Below are positions 16,828 to 56,602 of a stretch of 64,000 nt of DNA, in pieces. The notes below the pieces were generated by a model. That model ran no database searches, was not told where the DNA came from, and saw only the letters and a program-made list of their open reading frames with translations. Position 1 is the first letter of the stretch; each line of letters opens with the position of its first letter. A program made the translations under genes and the position numbers. This DNA is from Zopfochytrium polystomum (taxonomy: Eukaryota > Chytridiomycota > Chytridiomycetes > Chytridiales > Chytridiaceae), in NCBI GenBank assembly GCA_025765615.1, contig JAIVFJ010000222.1, positions 38,735 to 102,734 on the forward strand, read 5' to 3'.

Positions 16828-17110
16828 TGTTATGAATCACCCTCTGGAAACCTCTGGAACCTTCCAGAAAATTCCTCCTTGGAACCTTTTTTGCCGTTCT
16901 GACTTGTCTTGTTGTTGTCATTGGTATTATTGCATTGTTAATTGTTCTTTCTGGAATTTTCTTTGAGTTTTGAGAAGGAAGACTCTCAAAAAGTATATAA
17001 GGGGGGATGGGGGGCCTGTCTCATCCCTCAAGTGAATTATTGTTTACAATACAATCATCACTCCTCTCAGTTCCTTGTCTGCCTTGCCCTGTCCTGCCCT
17101 GTTCCTGACA
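16828..17110 (+). mobile_element. Solo LTR of the Gypsy family, with target duplication
   Basis: 283 bp starting TGTTATGAATCACC and ending CCTGTTCCTGACA, clearly homologous to the 353-bp LTRs at 19109 and 22711 but diverged. It is flanked by a perfect 5-bp target-site duplication, CAATG (16823-16827 and 17111-17115). It keeps a TATA-like TATATAAGG and the AGTGAATTATT block of the R start. It has only four contiguous heat-shock-element units (16857-16874). It is a product of LTR-LTR recombination of an older insertion. Confidence 0.92.
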
Positions 17111-17979: not shown

Positions 17980-19108
17980 ATTGTGAGACTACACCGAGGT
18001 CTCAGTGATAAAGTCTAGGGATTTTATTTGCAAAAACAAGCGTACCTGTCATAAAACTGCAAGGATCAGGACCCCTATTATTGCTCCCAGTTCTTTAGTT
18101 TCCAAGGCGTTATCAAAGTGTATTTGCAGCTAACCTGTCTTTATTATTGGGTCTGCTTTTACTACTTTTGTCTTAACAGTTTCTGTTGCACCAGGGTTTC
18201 CTCAACATATTTTCTTTTTCGGTGACTAACGGAGACTGCCCGACTGCCTAGGGATGGTGTGCCTGACAGGCTGTACCCCAAGCCCGCCTAATTTATTATT
18301 TATTTTTGGCACTTGTACATACATGCATAGGGTTGGGGGGGACTTAGAGCATTTGTGGTGGATGCTCCAAGTCAGGGGGTTGACTTGTCAATTTTCTCTC
18401 TCTCTGTTTTTGGGCCATTTCTCTTTTTCCTTTTTTTCTTCAATCTGATTTCTGTCCATTGGCACCAATACAGAGTCCCTTCAAATCCATCTGGCTCACA
18501 AAGGTGAGGGTAGTGAGAGATGGTACACACCCGGGTGTGTACATGGTCCCTTCGTGGGGCTCCTCTTAAGGGGCCGTGGGTGGGGAATGCAGCTGGCCCC
18601 ACCAGCGACTGTGTGACATTGCCGGCTCTGTGTTGGAGTGAGGATCCCTGGCGCTTGCCCGCCGCGACGACTGTGGTGGTGGTGGCGACGACGACGGCGT
18701 CGTCGTCTCCAACCTTCCCGTCCCCGCGAGGGTGTTGGTGGGTGCAGCCCCCGACACCTGAGAGTTCGATCTACAAGCGCCTGCCTCAGTCCTATTGCTG
18801 TGAGGATGAGATGTGTGAGTACGAGTGCGATGCGATAAAGCCCGTTGGTCGAGTGATCGTGCCGACGCAGCCCGGCGGGGTGCGTGTACGATCGCAGGTG
18901 TTTCCGCGTGCGAGTTCCCTGCTGGCGACCTTCTGACCCCTACATAGTCGACTCCCTTCTCTCTCTCCCCCCCGTCGCTGGCGACGACGAGGGCTCCCGC
19001 AGCACTGTCCGCGACGAGGGGCGCTAGGTCGCACCCTGTCCGTCCCGTTGCTATTAACCGCTCCTGTTGTGTTTGAGATTAGGTTCCTGAGATAAAAACC
19101 CCCGTTTC
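17980..19108. other. Repeat-like sequence hosting the Gypsy insertion
   Basis: There is no gene with support. The open frame at 18520-18936 has no recognisable domain. With the Gypsy element removed, this stretch continues directly into 23069 onward, so 18.2-19.1 kb plus 23.07-23.39 kb is one older sequence, possibly a long LTR (repeat A) into which the Gypsy inserted. Confidence 0.4.
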
Positions 19109-19137
19109 TGTTATGAATCACCCTCTGGAAACCTCTG

Positions 19138-19235
19138 GAACCTTCTAGAACATTCCTTCATGGAACCTTCTGGAACCTTCTGGAACCTTCTAGAACATTC
19201 CTTCATGGAACCTTGTGGAACCTTCTGGAACCTTC
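19138..19235 (+). promoter_or_regulatory. Heat-shock-element array in LTR U3
   Basis: Alternating GAA and TTC triplets at exact 5-bp spacing, the binding pattern of trimeric heat-shock factor (nGAAnnTTCn). Block 1 (19138-19155) has four units. Block 2 (19163-19200) has eight consecutive perfect units. Block 3 (19208-19235) has six units with one TTG mismatch. The array lies about 110-210 bp upstream of the TATA box and is repeated in the 3' LTR at 22740-22837. Heat induction is inferred from the motif, by analogy with the heat-activated plant element ONSEN. Confidence 0.8.
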
Positions 19236-19345
19236 TTTGCTTTCCTGACTTGTCTTGTTGTCATTGGTATCATTGGTATCATTGTATTACTAATTGCTCT
19301 TTCTGGAACTTTCTTGGAGTCTTGACAAGGAACACTCTCAAAAGG

Positions 19346-19352
19346 TATAAAA
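19346..19352 (+). promoter_or_regulatory. LTR TATA box
   Basis: TATAAAA in a G-rich context, positioned ~35 nt before the self-primer sequence at 19381. This is the expected distance between TATA box and RNA start. Confidence 0.8.
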
Positions 19353-19463
19353 GGGGGAAGGGGGACCTGTCCCATCCCTCAAGTGAATTATTGTTTCCAA
19401 TACAATCATCACTCCTCTCAGTTCCTTGTCTGCCTTGTCCTGTCCTGCCCTGTTCCTGACATC

Positions 19464-19474
19464 ATAATTCACTT
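19464..19474 (+). promoter_or_regulatory. Primer-binding site, Tf1-like self-priming
   Basis: The 11 nt ATAATTCACTT, two bases after the 5' LTR, is the exact complement of AAGTGAATTAT at 19381-19391, which is where the RNA should begin. No tRNA 3' end complement is evident. This is the arrangement of Tf1/sushi-type elements, where the RNA 5' end folds back, is cleaved and primes minus-strand synthesis. Confidence 0.75.
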
Positions 19475-19501
19475 CACCCTCTCCCACTACTCTCTGCCAT
19501 C

Positions 19502-20425
19502 ATGTCTGACCCAAACAACACCTTCCCTGATGCAACTGCCTTCCAAGCCGTGATGGACCAATTACAAGCCCTCTCAAGACAGACACACCAACTTCAAGAA
19601 CAAGTCCTTCACCAGCAGCACCAGCTTCAACAACAACTTCACCAACAAGAACATCAAGCTCTTCCCCTGCCTCAAGCCAACCAAGCAAGAGAGCCCAAGG
19701 TTCCCAGCCCTGACAAGTTCACTGGGCTGGCCAAAGACCTTAGGAACTTTATGACCACTGTGGAGAATGTCATCCTTCTCCAACCTTCAAGATTTCCCAG
19801 TGAGCAAGTCAAGGTTCTTTTCACAAGCACCCTCCTGTCTGGTCAAGCTCAATCATGGTACCGATCTCTCCCAAGCACACCCACCACCCTGCAAGAGCTC
19901 TGGGAGGGGCTGGAAGCTACCTTTGGTGACCCCTACGCATCTTGGACAGCAAGATCCAAGCTCAAGCATATCAAGCAAGGAAAGCAATCTTGTGTGGCCT
20001 ACACCAACCAATTCAAGCAACTAGCCAGAGACTCTGGATACAATGATGCAGCTCTGATGGAGCTGTACCATGATGGTCTCCATGAGTCTATCCAAGACAT
20101 GCTCTCCCAGTCTCTGCACATCCCTGAGACCTTGGAAGAGTACACTCTCCTTGCCATCAAGATTGACAACAGACTCTACTCCAAGAGACTGAAGCAAAGA
20201 CAAGTAGGAACTACATCAAGACCTACCCCAGTTCCTCAAGCTCTTACAGTTCCTGAACCCATGCAAGTGGATGCAGTTGAGACACTTCCTAAGGGTCCTC
20301 TGAGCCAAGAGGAGAAAGCAAGGAGGGCCCAGCAGGGACTGTGTTTTTACTGTGGCTCCAAGGAGCATGCTGTCAAGGACTGCCCAAGGAAGAAGCACCC
20401 AAACTCCCAGGTCCAGGCTCACTGA
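19502..20425 (+). CDS. gag: Gag of RT-less Gypsy element
   Basis: 307 aa from the first ATG after the LTR. Residues ~15-60 are Gln/His-rich. Residues ~70-230 form a retrotrans_gag capsid region (for example SKLKHIKQGKQSCVAYTNQF and RDSGYNDAALMELYHDGL). Near residue 279 there is a classic CCHC zinc knuckle, CFYCGSKEHAVKDC. The frame is fully open. The pol frame overlaps its end in the -1 frame (20341-20425), so expression of pol could use -1 frameshifting or a separate start. It would assemble the virus-like particle in the cytoplasm. Confidence 0.92.
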   Translation: MSDPNNTFPDATAFQAVMDQLQALSRQTHQLQEQVLHQQHQLQQQLHQQEHQALPLPQANQAREPKVPSPDKFTGLAKDLRNFMTTVENVILLQPSRFPSEQVKVLFTSTLLSGQAQSWYRSLPSTPTTLQELWEGLEATFGDPYASWTARSKLKHIKQGKQSCVAYTNQFKQLARDSGYNDAALMELYHDGLHESIQDMLSQSLHIPETLEEYTLLAIKIDNRLYSKRLKQRQVGTTSRPTPVPQALTVPEPMQVDAVETLPKGPLSQEEKARRAQQGLCFYCGSKEHAVKDCPRKKHPNSQVQAH

Positions 20426-20520
20426 GGGGCAATTCCCTGGACCCTCCTCCACGCTGCCCCTGTTTCATCACCACCACCAGCACCACAAACACCTCAGATT
20501 CCAAGCCCCACCAACTCACC

Positions 20521-22710
20521 ATGGATGTCAAGATTCAACTCTCACCCAAGTCAACCATCACAACCAAGGCCCTTATAGACTCTGGATCATCCTGCAACAT
20601 CATTGATGCCACCCTTGCCAAGTCTTGTGCCATTCCCACCATCAAGAAATCCACACCCCTCAAGGTTCACTTTGCCAATCATGCTCTGTTCAAGGAAATC
20701 AGCCATGAAACCAAGCTAAACCTCCACATCCAAGACTTTCCACCATCCATGGTCAACCTGGAAGTATTGGATCTTGGCTCACCCACATTCTCTGTCATCC
20801 TGGGATTACCATGGCTGCAAGCCCAGAACCCTGCCATTGATTGGGTCACTGGTCAAGTCCAACCTCCACCAATTGGAACAGTCACCCAAAACTCAAGTCA
20901 AGCCTCCAAGTCTCATGCTCTCAAGTCCCTGATTCAAGGCTCTCAGCCTAGTATCCAAGGTCAACCACAAATGACAGCTCCAGTATCAGCCTGCAGCTCA
21001 CAGATCCCAGCCAAGATTCAAGTTTCACAGTTCACAGTTCATAGTCAAGATTCCAGCACAGCTCATAGAGCTCACAGTCATGGCCAAGTCTGTAGTTCAC
21101 AGAACCCACAGTCAAAGATTCAAGTACCACAGTTCACAGTCCAAATTCAAGATTCAAGCTCCACAGCTCACAGTCTTTGCCAAGAACAGAACCCTCAGTC
21201 AAAGATTCAAGAATCACAGTTCCCAGTCAACAATTCAAGCCCCACTGCTGATGAGCACAGAAGGACAGACCTTGCACCTGAAGGGGGAGATGGTTTCACC
21301 CCACCTTCCAAGACACACCTTTCACTGCTTCCTGACAGTGTGTGGGCCCATGCTATTTCCAAGGACCCCAAGCCTCACAAGATTCAAATCAGCCAAGAAG
21401 AGGAAAAACTTGAGATACTCAAGACAAGGCATGTTGCAGCAACAGCTGGACACCCAGGAGAGCACAAGACATATGAGCTTGCTTCCAGAGACTTCTACTG
21501 GCCAGGCATGAGGAAGTACATCAAGAACTATGTCAGCAGCTGTGAAACCTGTCAAAGAAACAAATCCAGCAGACACAAGCCCTATGGACTTCTGGAGCCC
21601 CTCCCAATTGCCATCAGCCCTTGGTCATCAATATCCATGGACTTCATTGTGAAACTGCCCCCATCCCATGGATTTGACTCTATCCTTGTTGTCATCTGCA
21701 GAAGGACAAAGTTGGCCCATTTCATCCCCTGCACTGAGAATATAGATGCACAAGGAACAGCAGACCTGTTTTTGCAGCACATATTCAGGCTCCATGGGCT
21801 GCCTCAGTCAATCGTCAGTGACAGAGGACCACAGTTCAGATCTCAATTTTGGAAAGCACTCACAGCAGCCCTTGGAATCAAGTCTCAACTGTCAACTGCT
21901 TATCACCCTCAGACTGATGGACAAACAGAAAGAACAAACCAGACTCTGGAGCAGTATTTGAGGTGCTATGTCAGCTATCAACAGGATGATTGGCCCACCC
22001 TCCTTCCACTGGCAGAATTTGCTCTCAACAATTCTCTCCACTCAAGCACCCAGCTATCTCCTTTCTTTGCAACCTATGGCTTCAATCCAAGAGGAGATCT
22101 TCTGGGACAAGAGACCCTATCCAATGTCCAAGCTCCTGCTGCGGCTTCACACTTACATAAGCTCAAGATCATCAACTCCTTCCTGGACTCCACCCTGAAG
22201 CAAGCCCAAGAAGATGCCTCAAGATTTGCCAACACTCACAGAATGGACCATGACCTTGCTGTGGGTCAGCAAGTTTGGCTTCTGAGGAAGAACTTGCAGA
22301 CCAAAAGACCAAGTCCCAAGCTAGACAACCTCAAGTTGGGTCCTTTCAAGATCTTGGAGCAAATCAATCCAGTCACCTTCAAGCTGGATCTCCCTGCATC
22401 CATGAAGATCCACCCAGTTTTCCATGTCAGCCTTTTAGAGAAGTTTGTGGCCAATTCCATTCCAGGCAGAGTTGTTCCTCCTCCTCCTCCAGTTGAGGTA
22501 GAAGGTGAAGAGGAATTTGAGGTTGAACAAATCTTGGATGCCAAGTGGTTTGGAAGAACACTCAAGTTCCTTGTTAAGTGGAAAGGTTACTCAGATGCTG
22601 ACAACACCTGGGAGCCTGAGTCAAACCTCACTCACTGCCAAGACCTTCTCCTCGAGTTCAAGACCAGGTACCCCACCAAGTTGCAGAAGAGGCCTAAAAG
22701 GGGGAGATGA
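20521..22710 (+). CDS. pol: Truncated Pol: protease, integrase, chromodomain (no RT/RNase H)
   Basis: 729 aa from ATG 20521; the open frame extends upstream to 20341, overlapping gag. Aspartic protease: ALIDSGSSCNII. Next comes a linker rich in Ser, Gln and His with NPQSKIQ repeats. Residues ADEHRRTDLAPEGGD resemble the usual end of Gypsy RNase H (NPADxxSRRxD...PEGGD), which locates the deletion just upstream. Integrase: HHCC finger (AGHPGEHKT ... CETC) and catalytic D, D, E in SMDFIVKLP, VSDRGPQF and QTERTNQTLEQ. Chromodomain near the C-terminus: EVEQILDAKWFGRTLKFLVK, WKGYSDADNTWEPE. The stop codon abuts the 3' LTR. Codons are unbroken, consistent with recent mobility. Complete RT and RNase H are absent. 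Confidence 0.93.
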   Translation: MDVKIQLSPKSTITTKALIDSGSSCNIIDATLAKSCAIPTIKKSTPLKVHFANHALFKEISHETKLNLHIQDFPPSMVNLEVLDLGSPTFSVILGLPWLQAQNPAIDWVTGQVQPPPIGTVTQNSSQASKSHALKSLIQGSQPSIQGQPQMTAPVSACSSQIPAKIQVSQFTVHSQDSSTAHRAHSHGQVCSSQNPQSKIQVPQFTVQIQDSSSTAHSLCQEQNPQSKIQESQFPVNNSSPTADEHRRTDLAPEGGDGFTPPSKTHLSLLPDSVWAHAISKDPKPHKIQISQEEEKLEILKTRHVAATAGHPGEHKTYELASRDFYWPGMRKYIKNYVSSCETCQRNKSSRHKPYGLLEPLPIAISPWSSISMDFIVKLPPSHGFDSILVVICRRTKLAHFIPCTENIDAQGTADLFLQHIFRLHGLPQSIVSDRGPQFRSQFWKALTAALGIKSQLSTAYHPQTDGQTERTNQTLEQYLRCYVSYQQDDWPTLLPLAEFALNNSLHSSTQLSPFFATYGFNPRGDLLGQETLSNVQAPAAASHLHKLKIINSFLDSTLKQAQEDASRFANTHRMDHDLAVGQQVWLLRKNLQTKRPSPKLDNLKLGPFKILEQINPVTFKLDLPASMKIHPVFHVSLLEKFVANSIPGRVVPPPPPVEVEGEEEFEVEQILDAKWFGRTLKFLVKWKGYSDADNTWEPESNLTHCQDLLLEFKTRYPTKLQKRPKRGR
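22696..22707 (+). promoter_or_regulatory. Polypurine tract
   Basis: AAAAGGGGGAGA directly before the 3' LTR, overlapping the last codons of pol. It would be the plus-strand primer in reverse transcription. Confidence 0.85.
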
Positions 22711-23063
22711 TGTTATGAATCACCCTCTGGAAACCTCTGGAACCTTCTAGAACATTCCTTCATGGAACCTTCTGGAACCTTCTGGAACCTTCTAGAACAT
22801 TCCTTCATGGAACCTTGTGGAACCTTCTGGAACCTTCTTTGCTTTCCTGACTTGTCTTGTTGTCATTGGTATCATTGGTATCATTGTATTACTAATTGCT
22901 CTTTCTGGAACTTTCTTGGAGTCTTGACAAGGAACACTCTCAAAAGGTATAAAAGGGGGAAGGGGGACCTGTCCCATCCCTCAAGTGAATTATTGTTTCC
23001 AATACAATCATCACTCCTCTCAGTTCCTTGTCTGCCTTGTCCTGTCCTGCCCTGTTCCTGACA
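22711..23063 (+). repeat. Gypsy 3' LTR
   Basis: 353 bp, no difference from the 5' LTR found on visual comparison. It repeats the heat-shock-element array at 22740-22837. Confidence 0.95.
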
Positions 23064-23168
23064 GTTTCCCTCTTCTCTCTCTTTATTCTGCGGTTGTGTT
23101 GCGCCCTTGGGAGTGCCCTTCCGTTTCCCCTCGCATCGGCCCGCGGCCCCGCGAGTAATCGGTGCTCT

Positions 23169-43335: not shown

Positions 43336-44606
43336 ATGTCCTCGCACGCAGAACCAGAACTATGGCGCAACCTTTCCGGAGATTGCCTGCCACCCCCAAA
43401 TCGCTCGGGGCTGGAAACCCTGTTTGACAGCCTACTTGAGGGCCACTGCACCGCTCGCGTCTCCGAGCTTCCCTTTCCAGACGACCGCCACTTTACAGTA
43501 TGCTGCGTTAACTCTAATCGCCTTGCGTTCTGGGACAAGATTCTCTGCTATTCTCCGCCTTGGCGAGCGACGATGGTTCGGGACTGGCTCTCCAACGGGG
43601 TCGATGTAACACGCATGTTCCGTCCATTCCAGGGCATTTTCCAAGGCCGCTCCTACAACGCACCCTCTCCACCACACCGCGTCTTTCGCAATTACCCACT
43701 TCCACCAGGTACGCACCCCAAGGCTGGCCCATTCGCCGTTTGGATGGCCTCGACAATTGAGGACGAGGTCCGCTCTGGCGCACGCTGTATCATCAGCCCA
43801 GTGGCCAACTGCCCCCACCACATATTGTCTGCCCCACGGGGATCGAGCCCAACAAGCCTCGGAAGTTCGACGATTGCACCTTTCTCAACCTTTGGTTCTC
43901 ACCACCTTCCTTTTCCCTTGACACAATCACAACTCTTACGGGTTGGCTGGGAACTTCTGCGGCTAGCATCAATTTCAAGGCTGGCTACTTCAACATTCCC
44001 TTGGCCCCAAACAGCTACACTTATTTCGGCACAAGGGGACGGCTGAATGGGATTGAATACTACTTTGAGGCCCTCTGCCTCATTTTTGGTGGCTCCCCAT
44101 GCCCTTACGTCTTTCAAATGTTCTCAGACTCACTGGTTGCATTTCTTCGCCATTCACACATCCCATCTGCTATGTATTTGGACGACGCCATCTTTCAAAG
44201 TCGTCTTGCCTGGCCCACGGACTCTGTTGTGGCACAAGCGCCACCCCCAGTCCAAGCGGAGACGTCTATTTGTATCATATGCTTGCTATTTATCAATTGC
44301 GGCTATTTCATAAGCATTTCAAAGTCCCAGCTGGAGATGCTGTCTGCTCTGGTGTACCTGGGGTTTGTCTCTGATTTTGGCAATCAGACGTTCAGCATCC
44401 CGTTGGAGAAGGGCATCAAGTTTCAGACGCTTTTGGAGGCTATCTGGCTCCCAGCCTCCACCAGCCAGCCTATCTGCGCAGCTTCAGTCGAAAGTTTTGT
44501 TGGCAAATGCGCCAACTTCTCCCTCATAATTCAAGGCGGCCACACCAGCACTCAAGGCCGACCCGTTGGACCCATACATTGCTGCCCGTCGCCAGCTCTT
44601 TCATGA
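43336..44606 (+). pseudogene. DIRS-like reverse transcriptase, frameshifted
   Basis: The first frame (to ~43800) reads through RVFRNYPLPPGTHPKAGPF and EDEVRSGARCII, the region upstream of RT in DIRS elements. The protein then continues in another frame: CPTGIEPNKPRKFDDCTFLN, FKAGYFNIPLAPNSYTYFGT, FGGSPCPYVFQMFSDSLVAF, YLDDAIF (the YxDD catalytic motif), YFISISKSQLEMLSALVYLG, FSIPLEKGIKFQTLLEAIW, ESFVGKCANFS. These follow the DIRS RT order closely. A one-base shift near 43800 breaks the gene. The stop at 44606 comes where RNase H should start. Confidence 0.8.
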
Positions 44607-45870
44607 GTTCCTCCGCTCACGGCCGCGCCAACTCCCCAAGGATGCCGTACGAGACGCTTTGGCCCACTTCCTGTCAATCCGGGGCATTCCCATTTCTAGC
44701 ACAACTCCCACCCTTGTAGTGGACTTCCTCATCTCAAAAGATCAGTCCGGCACCACTCAGTTTCACACCAGTTCCTGCCCCCACAAAGGCCATGCAACTC
44801 CAGGCAAACGTCAGCTGGTGGGGTACTCATGTGATGGTTTCACCTGCCCTTCCTTCTCCAGCTGCCCTCACCGCAATGATCGGGCAGGCCCAGCTGATCC
44901 CACACTCTGCTCTCTCCACGCAGCCCCTTCCTCCCTGTCCACCATTGTAAGCCACCTCCGGCAAACATTTGTTCAGCTGGGCTCTGATCAACCCTGGTCT
45001 CCCAACAATCCAAGGGGGAATCCAGCTGACTCCTTTCTGGTCTCGTCCTATGTTGAATGGATGACATCCTTGGCATCGTCGGCCCAAGTGACCCCACTCC
45101 AAGCAACGCCTGCGTTCGCAGATGACCTGCGACAGGTTCTCTGTCAGTGGGCCTCCTCTCAGACAGCCACCACTATTCGTTCGTCTCATGTCACTCAGCT
45201 CCGTTCTCAGCTCCGCCTCTGCACTTGGTATGCATTCACCCTGCTTTGTGGCCTCACTGGTGGTCGCGGGGGGGATATTGTCCAGCTTATGCCCACAGCT
45301 GTCTGGCACCTCCCAAACTATGACGGCGTCCTCCTGGGTTTCTTTGCGGGCAAGACTACATCCAAGGGCGCAGCTGAATATGTGGCTATCCTTGCTTCAC
45401 CAGAGGATCTGCGCCTCTGCTTTGTCCAAGCACTTTCACGTCTTAGGGAGGCCTCAGCGGCAGCCGGTCTGGACGTCATGGCCCAGCCCAAGCTATTTCT
45501 TAATCACACAGACACCGCGTTTTCTACGGCCCCCCTTGCAATCCCAACTGTCAAACGCTCCATCCAGCAGATTTTGGGCCGCACAGTGACAGTCTATGGC
45601 TTTCAGGTGGGGAACGCCATCTCGTCTCGCATGGCCCCAGACCAGCTTCACGACGTCATGAGTTGGGGCAACTGGCGCACTGCTTCTATGGCGAACCGCT
45701 ACAGCCATCTTGTCCCTGTCACTGCTGGCGGTGACCCAGCACAATGGATGGCGAATCTCTCTCGTTGGATCCAGGCTAATCGGCAGCTTCTCTTCTTTGC
45801 TTCCTCTGATACTATGCAAATCCCCTCAGTTGTAGCCGCACACGGCCACATATTTTCAGTACAGGGATGA
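44566..45870 (+). CDS. Tyrosine recombinase of the DIRS-like element
   Basis: A 434-aa frame open from 44566; the true start may be the upstream overlap with RT. Helical N-terminal part: REFLRSRPRQLPKDAVRDAL-like. The catalytic domain follows: STIVSHLRQTFVQLG, then TIRSSHVTQLRSQLRLCTWY, FTLLCGLTGGRGGDIVQL (box I Arg), HLPNYDGVLLGFFAGKTTSKG (Lys strand), SSRMAPDQLHDVMSWGNWRT (box II region) and MANRYSHLVP with the nucleophile Tyr. A cysteine/histidine-rich stretch (SCPHKGHAT ... SCPHRND) lies between. In DIRS elements this enzyme inserts the circular DNA copy into the genome without making target duplications. Confidence 0.8.
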   Translation: MDPYIAARRQLFHEFLRSRPRQLPKDAVRDALAHFLSIRGIPISSTTPTLVVDFLISKDQSGTTQFHTSSCPHKGHATPGKRQLVGYSCDGFTCPSFSSCPHRNDRAGPADPTLCSLHAAPSSLSTIVSHLRQTFVQLGSDQPWSPNNPRGNPADSFLVSSYVEWMTSLASSAQVTPLQATPAFADDLRQVLCQWASSQTATTIRSSHVTQLRSQLRLCTWYAFTLLCGLTGGRGGDIVQLMPTAVWHLPNYDGVLLGFFAGKTTSKGAAEYVAILASPEDLRLCFVQALSRLREASAAAGLDVMAQPKLFLNHTDTAFSTAPLAIPTVKRSIQQILGRTVTVYGFQVGNAISSRMAPDQLHDVMSWGNWRTASMANRYSHLVPVTAGGDPAQWMANLSRWIQANRQLLFFASSDTMQIPSVVAAHGHIFSVQG

Positions 45871-54847: not shown

Positions 54848-55155
54848 TGTCAGGAACATGGCAGGACAGGACAAGGCAGACAAGGAACTGAGAGGAGTGA
54901 TGATTGTATTGGAAACAATAATTCACTTGAGGGATGGGACAGGTCCCCCATCCCCCTTTTATACCTTTTGAGAGTGTTCCTTGTCAAGACTCAAAGAAAG
55001 TTCCAGAAAGAGCAATTAGTAATACAATGATACCAATGATACCAATGACAACAAGACAAGTCAGGAAAGCAAAGAAGGTTCCAGAAGGTTCCACAAGGTT
55101 CCATGAAGGAATGTTCTAGAAGGTTCCAGAGGTTTCCAGAGGGTGATTCATAACA
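54848..55155 (-). repeat. LTR of the truncated Gypsy copy (308 bp)
   Basis: Same ends as the 353-bp LTR (TGTTATGAATC...TGACA). It lacks one 45-bp unit, so it has 10 heat-shock-element units (55074-55101 and 55109-55126) instead of 18. The TATA box and self-primer block are kept. Confidence 0.92.
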
Positions 55156-56602
55156 TCATCTCCCCCTTTTAGGCCTCTTCTGCAACTTGGTGGGGTACCT
55201 GGTCTTGAACTTGAGCAGAAGGTCTTGGCAGTGAGTGAGGTTTGACTCAGGTTCCCAGGTGTTGTCAGCATCTGCGTAACCTTTCCACTTGACAAGGAAC
55301 TTGAGTGTCCTTCCAAACCACTTGGCATCCAAGATTTGTTCAACCTCAAATTCCTCTTCACCTTCTACCTCAACTGGAGGAGGAGGAGGAACAACTCTGC
55401 CTGGAATGGAATTGGCCACAAACTTCTCCAAAAGGCTGACATGGAAAACTGGGTGGATCTTCATAGATGCAGGGAGATCCAGCTTGGAGGTGACTGGATT
55501 GATTTGCTCCAAGATCTTGAAAGGTCCCAACTTGAGGTTGTCTAGCTTGGGACTTGGTCTTTTGGTCTGCGAGTTCTTCCTCAGAAGCCAAACTTGCTGA
55601 CCCACAGCAAGGTCATGGTCCATTCTGTGAGTGTTGGCAAACCTTGAGGCATCTTCTTGGGCTTGCTTCAGGGTGGAGTCCAGGAAGGTGCTGATGATCT
55701 TGAGCTTATGCAAGTGTGAAACCACAGCAGGAGCTTGGACATTGGATAGGGTCTCTTGTCCCAGAAGATCTCCTCTTGGATTGAAGCCATAGGTTGCAAA
55801 GAAAGGAGATAGCTGGGTGCTTGAGTGGAGAGAATTGTTGAGAGCAAATTCTGCCAGCAGAAGGAGGGTGGGCCAATCATCCTGCTGATCGCTGACATAG
55901 CACCTCAAATACTGCTCCAGAGTCTGGTTTGTTCTTTCTGTTTGTCCATCAGTCTGAGGGTGATAAGCAGTTAACAGTTGAGACTTGATTCCAAGGGCTG
56001 CAGTGAGTGCTTTCCAAAATTGAGATCTGAACTGTGGTCCTCTGTCACTGATGATTGACTGGGGCAGCCCATGGAGCCTGAATATGTGCTGCAAAAACAG
56101 GTCTGCTGTTCCTTGTGCATCTATATTCTCAGTGCAGGGGATCAAATGGGCCAACTTTGTCCTTCTGCAGATGACAACAAGGATAGAGTCAAATCCATGG
56201 GATGGGGGCAGTTTCACAATGAAGTCCATGGATATTGATGACCAAGGGCTGATGGCAATTGGGAGGGGCTCCAGAAGTCCATAGGGCTTGTGTTTGCTGG
56301 ATTTGTTTCTTTGACAGGTTTCACAGCTGCTGACATAGTTCTTGATGAACTTCCTCATGCCTGGACAGTAGAAGTCTCTGGAAACAAGCTCATATGTCTT
56401 GTGCTCTCCTGGGTGTCCAGCTGTTGCTGCATCATGCCTTGTCTTGAGTATCTCAAGTTTTTCCTCCTCTTGGCTGATTTGAATCTTGTGAGGCTTGGGG
56501 TCCTTGGAAATAGCATGGGCCCACACACTGTCAGGAAGCAATGAAAGGTGTGTCTTGGATGGTGGGGTGAAACCATCTCCCCCTTCAGGTGCATGGTACT
56601 CA
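55156..56602 (-). pseudogene. Integrase-chromodomain of the truncated Gypsy copy
   Basis: Open frame with the same integrase HHCC (CETCQRNKSS), DDE (SMDFIVKLP, ISDRGPQFRS, QTERTNQTLEQ) and chromodomain residues as the 19-kb copy, reading to the stop at the LTR. The N-terminus is fused to repeat R sequence, so the apparent ORF start at 56736 (MDWSAALCAATPHP) is not a Gypsy start. It cannot make protease or RT. Confidence 0.85.

What the first reader, a model, noticed from the sequence alone, without database searches (positions are those of the whole stretch)
19109..23063. Recently inserted Gypsy chromovirus that lacks RT and RNase H but keeps open gag, protease, integrase and chromodomain
Seen: equal 353-bp LTRs with no difference found by eye, a 5-bp duplication (GTTTC), an open gag frame, and a pol frame running from the DSGSSC protease site to the chromodomain with no stop, yet no RT or RNase H. 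The remnant ADEHRRTDLAPEGGD resembles the C-terminal end of RNase H, so RT/RH was removed in frame. Known: Gypsy pol order is PR-RT-RH-IN, and LTRs are identical at insertion. Inference: this is a non-autonomous derivative that supplies its own Gag and integrase and borrows RT in trans. That is different from classic TRIM/LARD elements, which keep no coding capacity.
Basis: partly seen in the sequence, partly recalled or inferred. Interest (0 to 1): 0.9.

Follow-up and report, generated by a model that had tools for sequence, protein, structure and literature searches.

The report
RT-less chromovirus, likely copied by sisters
This mobile element, whose two ends are still identical, lacks the reverse-transcriptase part of its gene but keeps open frames for its other proteins; more than 200 places in the same genome carry the same gap, so it was likely copied by enzymes of complete sister elements, and its sequence is a patchwork that likely arose when RNAs of both kinds were copied together.

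Summary
Window 19109-23063 is a 3,955-bp Ty3/Gypsy chromovirus with identical 353-bp LTRs, a 5-bp duplication, open gag, and a pol frame with protease, integrase and chromodomain but no RT or RNase H. Full-length sisters of 5,305 bp exist; the 1,410 bp missing here encode RVT_1 and RT_RNaseH. The RT-less junction occurs at 224 places in the 80-Mb genome, the RT active-site motif at 351. Eighteen of 20 RT-less copies examined have 5-bp duplications, all different, so they moved as RT-less elements, likely with RT in trans. By exact patterns 138 RT-less places also lack the integrase core and 46, the window among them, keep it; 13 RT-bearing places lack the core and 318 keep it. All four combinations point to exchange. 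The window copy itself is a mosaic: linker identical to integrase-deleted RT-less copies, integrase core identical to a full-length copy (0/774), break at 21482-21495. Template switching between co-packaged RNAs is the likely cause. Semi-autonomous elements keeping Gag or Gag-Pro are known in wheat; loss of RT/RH alone with integrase kept is a new variant.

The parts
19104..19108 (+). target-site duplication GTTTC, left copy
   Evidence: sequence
19109..19461 (+). 5' LTR, 353 bp, TG...CA
   Evidence: identical to the 3' LTR; 100% identical to LTRs of full-length copies on contigs C351 and C110
19346..19351 (+). TATA box in U3 (predicted)
19381..19391 (+). AAGTGAATTAT, predicted start of the RNA and self-primer
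   Evidence: 11 nt perfectly complementary to the PBS, 35 nt after the TATA box
19464..19474 (+). ATAATTCACTT, predicted self-primed primer binding site
   Evidence: motif present in 30 of 30 copies tested
19502..20425 (+). gag, 307 aa, capsid and CCHC zinc knuckle
   Evidence: Retrotrans_gag E 2.4e-12; zf-CCHC weak, below its cut-off
20398..20404 (+). CCCAAAC, possible -1 frameshift site in the gag/pol overlap (predicted)
   Evidence: in phase for -1; present in 30 of 30 copies
20293..22710 (+). pol frame, 805 codons open, -1 relative to gag
20560..20814 (+). aspartic protease (DSGSSC)
   Evidence: Asp_protease_2 E 1.7e-06
20899..21258 (+). protease-side linker of the RT-less lineage; 20947-21006 is absent from the full-length copies aligned
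   Evidence: 0/360 differences to integrase-deleted copies J25, K34, K35, K36; 21-22/300 to 7 full-length-type copies
21258..21259 (+). deletion junction: 1,410 bp coding RT and RNase H missing, in frame
   Evidence: block identified; junction at 224 places
21397..21570 (+). integrase H2C2 zinc domain
   Evidence: E 1.4e-22
21482..21495 (+). switch point of the mosaic (inferred)
   Evidence: MaxChi permutation with four candidate RT-less parents and FL3, p 0.0002-0.0004
21509..22282 (+). integrase core region kept here and deleted in the larger RT-less class
   Evidence: 0/774 differences to full-length copy FL3; 138 RT-less places lack it, 46 keep it
22264..22449 (+). SH3-like C-terminal integrase domain
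   Evidence: SH3_Tf2-1 E 7.6e-19
22516..22668 (+). chromodomain
   Evidence: Chromo E 2.4e-16
22696..22710 (+). polypurine tract AAAAGGGGGAGATGA (predicted)
22711..23063 (+). 3' LTR, 353 bp
23064..23068 (+). target-site duplication GTTTC, right copy
   Evidence: sequence

Best explanation
This is a copy, with identical LTRs, of a chromovirus subfamily that lacks reverse transcriptase and RNase H, was likely replicated by enzymes of full-length sister elements in the same genome, and is a mosaic of RT-less and full-length-type sequence. Shown: one deletion junction at 224 places; RT-less copies between different 5-bp duplications; LTRs, polypurine tract and primer site kept; gag and the shortened pol frame open in nearly all copies read; all four combinations of RT present or absent and integrase core present or absent. 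Inferred: RNA of the RT-less element is packaged together with full-length RNA. Inferred: the reverse transcriptase starts by self-priming (5' end of the RNA on the site next to the 5' LTR), transfers to the 3' end of a full-length RNA, copies U3, chromodomain and integrase, then switches near 21482-21495 to RNA of an integrase-deleted RT-less element and finishes. One such switch explains why both LTRs carry a U3 variant (19359/22961 A) seen only in two full-length copies of those aligned, why the integrase is full-length type, and why the linker is RT-less type.
For: RT-less junction at 224 places, 0 for the reversed control pattern; RT motif at 351 places; 6 of 7 full-length-type copies read have open gag and 1,255-codon pol; the missing block is RVT_1 plus RT_RNaseH. 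18 of 20 RT-less copies have 5-bp duplications and 2 of 2 more, all 20 different. Zero LTR differences in 14 of 23 RT-less copies. PBS motif in 30/30 copies, PPT in 29/30. Exact-pattern table: RNase H side with integrase intact 318, with integrase deletion 13; RT-less with integrase intact 46, with integrase deletion 138. Of the 13, two on C25 and three on C36 and C52 carry, at the edges of the integrase deletion, variants printed (CCGGGC or CAGTCC) that RT-less deleted copies also carry. Mosaic of the window copy: 0/584 differences from 20899 to 21482 against J25, K34 and K36, 0/774 in the integrase core against FL3, 0/272 in U3 against FL1 and FL2; break 21482-21495 against K33-K36 with FL3 as other parent, p 0.0002-0.0004. 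Further mosaics: J25 (p 0.0008 with K34, 0.007 with K35) and J11 (p 0.003 with J17; with J25 as parent the break moves and p is 0.03).
Against: No RNA, protein or particle data. Gene conversion between integrated copies followed by a new round of transposition would give the same mosaics. The integrase deletion lies between 8-bp repeats and could have arisen more than once, which would weaken the four-combination argument. The direction of exchange is not settled: the CACCTTCC variant is in 8 of about 100 integrase-deleted rows shown (of 138) and 1 of 46 integrase-intact places, which alone is not significant (Fisher p 0.27). No one sampled full-length copy has both the U3 variant and the integrase variants of the window copy, so the donor is unsampled or there was a second switch. 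The integrase core is also only 1/774 from RT-less copy J17, so an integrase-intact RT-less donor is possible. Gag does not point to one parent (6-22 differences to every copy). MaxChi p values are not corrected for the choice of parents.
Confidence: 0.82

Rival explanations
1. Passive cheater: the RT-less lineage moves because it keeps the cis signals, and the open gag, protease, integrase and chromodomain frames are leftovers of youth and of frequent exchange with full-length copies.
For: Copies look young (14 of 23 with identical LTRs). Exchange with full-length copies imports filtered variants. Removing sites polymorphic in the 7 full-length copies raises gag pN/pS to 0.58, not significant. 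Singletons, which should be mostly neutral, are also low in the pol frame of integrase-deleted copies (0.30; SH3-chromodomain 0.17), as import would give and selection on RT-less proteins would not. The integrase core is dispensable for spread.
Against: In integrase-deleted copies shared variants have pN/pS 0.17 (gag), 0.05 (protease), 0.12 (SH3-chromo) but 1.28 in the orphan zinc-domain relic (N/S contrast Fisher p 0.001). After removing variants polymorphic in full-length copies the contrast is p 0.08 for all three and p 0.008 for protease plus chromodomain. Both large deletions kept the frame.
Confidence: 0.45
2. Semi-autonomous partner: RT-less copies supply Gag (and protease or integrase tail) to shared particles, and selection keeps those frames open.
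For: Frames open in 22 of 23 RT-less copies for gag (at least 320 codons) and 22 of 23 for pol (at least 500 codons); gag singletons 1.30 against shared 0.17 in integrase-deleted copies; precedent RLG_Quinta and RLG_Sabrina_SA (PMC11302176, PMC9744471, passages).
Against: Import from full-length copies can mimic the signal; low pN/pS of pol singletons is not expected from it; no protein data.
Confidence: 0.42
3. The copy is an assembly collapse or a local deletion in one old full-length insertion.
For: None found.
Against: Same junction at 224 places, different duplications, linked variants around the junction in all 14 RT-less copies aligned.
Confidence: 0.01

Closest known systems
RLG_Sabrina_SA of wheat (semi-autonomous Gypsy; PMC9744471, passages seen)
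   Same: No RT and no integrase coding, open Gag-protease, high copy number, moved in trans.
   Different: Here the subfamily shares most of its DNA with its full-length sisters; the window class keeps a whole integrase with chromodomain; the second class keeps the chromodomain tail.
RLG_Quinta / RLG_Cereba of wheat centromeres (PMC11302176, passages seen)
   Same: Autonomous and non-autonomous partners with conserved PBS and LTR ends; the partner keeps Gag; recombination by template switching proposed.
   Different: Quinta keeps only Gag plus an unknown domain and its Gag barely aligns to Cereba at DNA level; an old pair, while the copies here are nearly identical and show exchange of sequence.
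Tf1/Sushi and related self-primed chromoviruses (PMC6317226, passages seen)
   Same: Chromodomain and an LTR-complementary PBS.
   Different: Those are classed by their RT, which the window copy lacks.
ONSEN recombination in Arabidopsis (PMC5668417, passages seen)
   Same: New copies are mosaics of two family members, attributed to co-packaged RNAs.
   Different: A Copia family observed in a burst; here one parent type lacks RT and the other carries it, and the evidence is from resident copies.
TRIM, LARD, TR-GAG, BARE-2 (definitions recalled, not from a call)
   Same: Non-autonomous LTR elements moved in trans.
   Different: TRIM/LARD keep no coding frames, TR-GAG keeps gag alone, BARE-2 lost gag but keeps RT.

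Membership tests
Ty3/Gypsy chromovirus | integrase with C-terminal chromodomain | tested here: met
   rve, SH3_Tf2-1, Chromo in one frame
Ty3/Gypsy chromovirus | pol order PR-RT-RH-IN | tested here: not met
   window copy is PR-IN; its full-length sisters have RT and RNase H between protease and integrase, so it is a deletion derivative of one
Tf1/Sushi-type self-primed elements | PBS complementary to the element's own RNA 5' end | tested here: met
   11 nt, 35 nt after TATA; the RNA start and the priming itself are predicted, not tested
Tf1/Sushi-type self-primed elements | position in an RT/integrase tree | not tested
   no tree was built
TRIM / LARD | no coding capacity | tested here: not met
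   two long open frames
TR-GAG | gag only | tested here: not met
   protease, integrase and chromodomain also present
Semi-autonomous LTR element | lacks RT, keeps open Gag-protease | tested here: met
Semi-autonomous LTR element | autonomous partner with matching LTR ends and PBS in the genome | tested here: met
   partner activity itself not tested
Semi-autonomous LTR element | its proteins are made and used | not testable with these tools
   no expression data

The most novel reading that the evidence does not exclude
A division of labour within one chromovirus family: RT-less elements, RT-less elements without the integrase core, and RT-bearing elements without the integrase core live beside complete ones, hold gag, protease and the chromodomain tail under selection as partners in shared particles, and regain or lose RT and integrase modules by template switching, so that the family behaves like a population exchanging modules rather than as autonomous elements and dead parasites.
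Probability: 0.3. Interest if true: 0.7.

Novelty: new variant of a known kind. Interest (0 to 1): 0.5.

Why it matters
LTR retrotransposons can spread without their own reverse transcriptase. Here the complete form, the RT-less form and forms without the integrase core sit in one genome, in the copies read mostly 97-100% identical over shared coding parts other than the linker, with single-nucleotide marks of exchange. That makes it possible to ask which proteins a borrowed-RT element must still encode in cis, and whether lost domains are regained by copying from partners.

Tried and rejected
Assembly collapse: rejected. Lone copy without partner: rejected. Independent RT deletions in many full-length copies: rejected, because variants 21231, 21252 and 21264 and the junction are shared by all 14 RT-less copies aligned and by none of the 6 full-length copies there. 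Microhomology at the RT deletion: none clear from the aligned copies; the integrase deletion has an 8-bp repeat TGAGGAAG. Excess of integrase-left-end places (459) over the full-length left junction (261) was first read as other RT-less classes. Of four stretches then fetched, L030, L031 and L032 turned out RT-bearing with a variant junction, and L029 was an integrase-plus-chromodomain array, so 261 undercounts RT-bearing copies and 351 is the better figure. The 192 integrase-deletion junctions were first read as all RT-less, made when checking this report, showed 13 exact RT-bearing places with that deletion. Naming the host failed: the F-box gene search found nothing; the one organism name among the 120 listed integrase hits is Taphrina deformans, 54% identical, while the few named gag hits are two fishes and a Brevinema bin at 28-35% identity and the best hits are unnamed metagenome proteins; a fungus is a guess. 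Paper searches for an RT-less, integrase-keeping element listed none that I recognised from title or abstract start; subscription papers are not held. Rows left out of counts: L016, L023 and L027 (truncated or interrupted RT-less copies) were not taken as elements; J09b was left out; K33 and K36 have no duplication check because their fetched stretch does not cover the 5' flank. The full-length sample (7) was chosen by LTR similarity to the window, so its zero LTR differences are biased; the RT-less sample is the first places in contig order plus L005 and four chosen for identity to the window at 21100-21420.
Full report
What was checked. The element at 19109-23063 is as described: two identical 353-bp LTRs, GTTTC on both sides, open gag, a pol frame of 805 codons, and protease, integrase, SH3 and chromodomain matches without any RT or RNase H match listed at E up to 1.

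Sister copies. The LTR finds many copies in the window's own 80.16-Mb genome (44 matches listed, 40 of 1,031 candidates scored). Seven full-length-type copies were read; six are 5,305 bp with gag of 321 codons and pol of 1,255 codons open (stop to stop), and one (FL4, 5,094 bp) has broken gag and pol frames. Compared with them the window copy lacks 1,410 bp at 21258/21259 and has 60 bp more linker. The missing block matches RVT_1 (1.6e-39) and RT_RNaseH (1.5e-36).

Copy numbers (patterns with up to 3 mismatches; the reversed control patterns gave 0). RT-less junction 224; full-length left junction 261, an undercount; RT active-site motif 351; integrase-core deletion junction 192; intact left end of the integrase core 459. 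Exact gapped patterns give a two-by-two table: RNase H side with intact integrase end 318, RNase H side with integrase deletion 13, RT-less with intact integrase end 46 including the window, RT-less with integrase deletion 138. So there are about two RT-less places for every three RT-bearing ones, three quarters of the RT-less places in the exact table lack the integrase core, and all four combinations exist. If each deletion happened once, four combinations require recombination. Five of the 13 RT-bearing deleted places (two on C25, two on C36, one on C52) show edge variants that RT-less deleted copies also carry; the 8-bp repeat at the deletion leaves repeated deletion possible for others.

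They moved as RT-less elements. Of 20 RT-less copies with both ends read, 18 have 5-bp duplications; J12 and J15 do not. Two more (K34, K35) have them. All 20 duplications differ. LTR pairs are identical in 14 of 23; J10, J12 and J15 differ at 1, 3 and 5 positions, and six further counts are inflated by indels, repeat growth or a cut end. gag is open over at least 320 codons in 22 of 23 (not J13) and pol over at least 500 codons in 22 of 23 (J10 is interrupted by an insertion).

Cis signals. The 11 nt at 19464-19474 just after the 5' LTR are complementary to 19381-19391 in the LTR, 35 nt after a TATA box. This fits the self-priming described for Tf1/Sushi and Tcn1 elements (passages of PMC6317226). 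The PBS motif is in 30 of 30 copies, the R motif in 29 of 30 and the polypurine tract in 29 of 30. Any reverse transcriptase of the family should therefore accept RT-less RNA (inference).

Mosaic. One search lists 10 stretches 100% identical to window 21100-21420, the window included (40 of 1,023 candidates scored, so a lower bound). None of the other nine is among the 46 integrase-intact places. Five of the nine were read (K33-K36 and J25), and all five lack the integrase core. From 20899 to 21482 the window copy differs from J25, K34 and K36 at 0 of 584 positions and from full-length copies at 26-28 plus the 60-bp block. From 21495 on it matches full-length copies: 0 of 774 to FL3 in the integrase core, and 22300, 22339, 22437, 22614 and 22654 are full-length type (one of six full-length copies differs at 22437), unlike K33-K36. 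A MaxChi permutation puts the break at 21482-21495 with each of four RT-less parents, p 0.0002-0.0004. Both LTRs carry A at 19359/22961, seen in FL1 and FL2 and in none of the other 22 RT-less copies or 5 other full-length copies. In reverse transcription U3 of both LTRs derives from the 3' end of the RNA (established knowledge), so one minus-strand switch accounts for the pattern. J25 and J11 are further mosaics with weaker support. Against this: the donor with both U3 and integrase variants was not sampled, RT-less copy J17 is only 1/774 away in the integrase core, gag fits no parent closely, direction is open, and gene conversion is possible.

Selection. Among 18 integrase-deleted copies, variants shared by two or more copies have pN/pS 0.17 in gag, 0.05 in protease, 0.12 in SH3-chromodomain and 1.28 in the orphan zinc-domain relic (contrast p 0.001). 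Leaving out variants polymorphic in the seven full-length copies (all 23 RT-less copies), gag rises to 0.58 (not significant) while protease (0.13) and SH3-chromodomain (0.14) stay low; the contrast is then p 0.08 for the three together and p 0.008 for protease plus chromodomain. Against selection: singletons in the pol frame of integrase-deleted copies are also low (0.30, SH3-chromodomain 0.17) although gag singletons are 1.30, which points to import from full-length copies. Selection on RT-less proteins is suggested, not shown.

Known relatives. Wheat RLG_Sabrina_SA (Gag-protease, no RT or integrase) and RLG_Quinta (Gag only) are the nearest in kind (passages of PMC9744471 and PMC11302176). 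ONSEN shows mosaic new copies attributed to co-packaged RNAs (passages of PMC5668417). A fungal survey notes that most of its most successful elements have incomplete pol genes (passages of PMC3248453). This element is a new variant of the semi-autonomous kind.

Noticed in passing
L004 301-5394 (G000:C25:425230-430323): An RT-bearing copy with about 200 bp of gag deleted and broken frames still has identical LTRs and a 5-bp duplication, so a gag-defective copy also seems to have moved.
   Followed up: partly
G000 C19:46011, C25:319487, C25:323633, C36:100909, C36:107595, C40:46050, C52:287005, C210:71949, C233:23127, C288:65770, C290:69560, C365:43662, C514:15490: A reciprocal class: RNase H side present but integrase core deleted with the same junction as in the RT-less copies.
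   Followed up: partly
G000 C47:96161-104743, C63:40823-46766, C25:159411-165263, C6:361891-371679, C6:236776-240261, C18:208217-216572: Head-to-tail series of elements at nearly constant spacing (about 2,769, 2,834, 2,788, 3,171, 1,725 and 4,160 bp), probably LTR-sharing tandem arrays (parts of the last two read).
   Followed up: partly
window 54848-56597, minus strand: Another fragment of the family: LTR, chromodomain and integrase, ending abruptly in unrelated sequence at 56598.
   Followed up: partly
window 16828-17110: A diverged partial LTR of the family (about 82% over most of it) 2 kb upstream.
   Followed up: no
L029 (G000:C6:237500-243500): Array of short units with LTR, integrase core and chromodomain but no gag, protease or RT match; a different deletion class.
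   Followed up: partly
L010 2751-3846: About 1.1 kb inserted in the integrase zinc domain of an RT-less copy.
   Followed up: no
window 44530-45867: Open frame with a weak ALOG-domain match (E 2.7e-06), as seen in some recombinase-type mobile elements (recalled).
   Followed up: no
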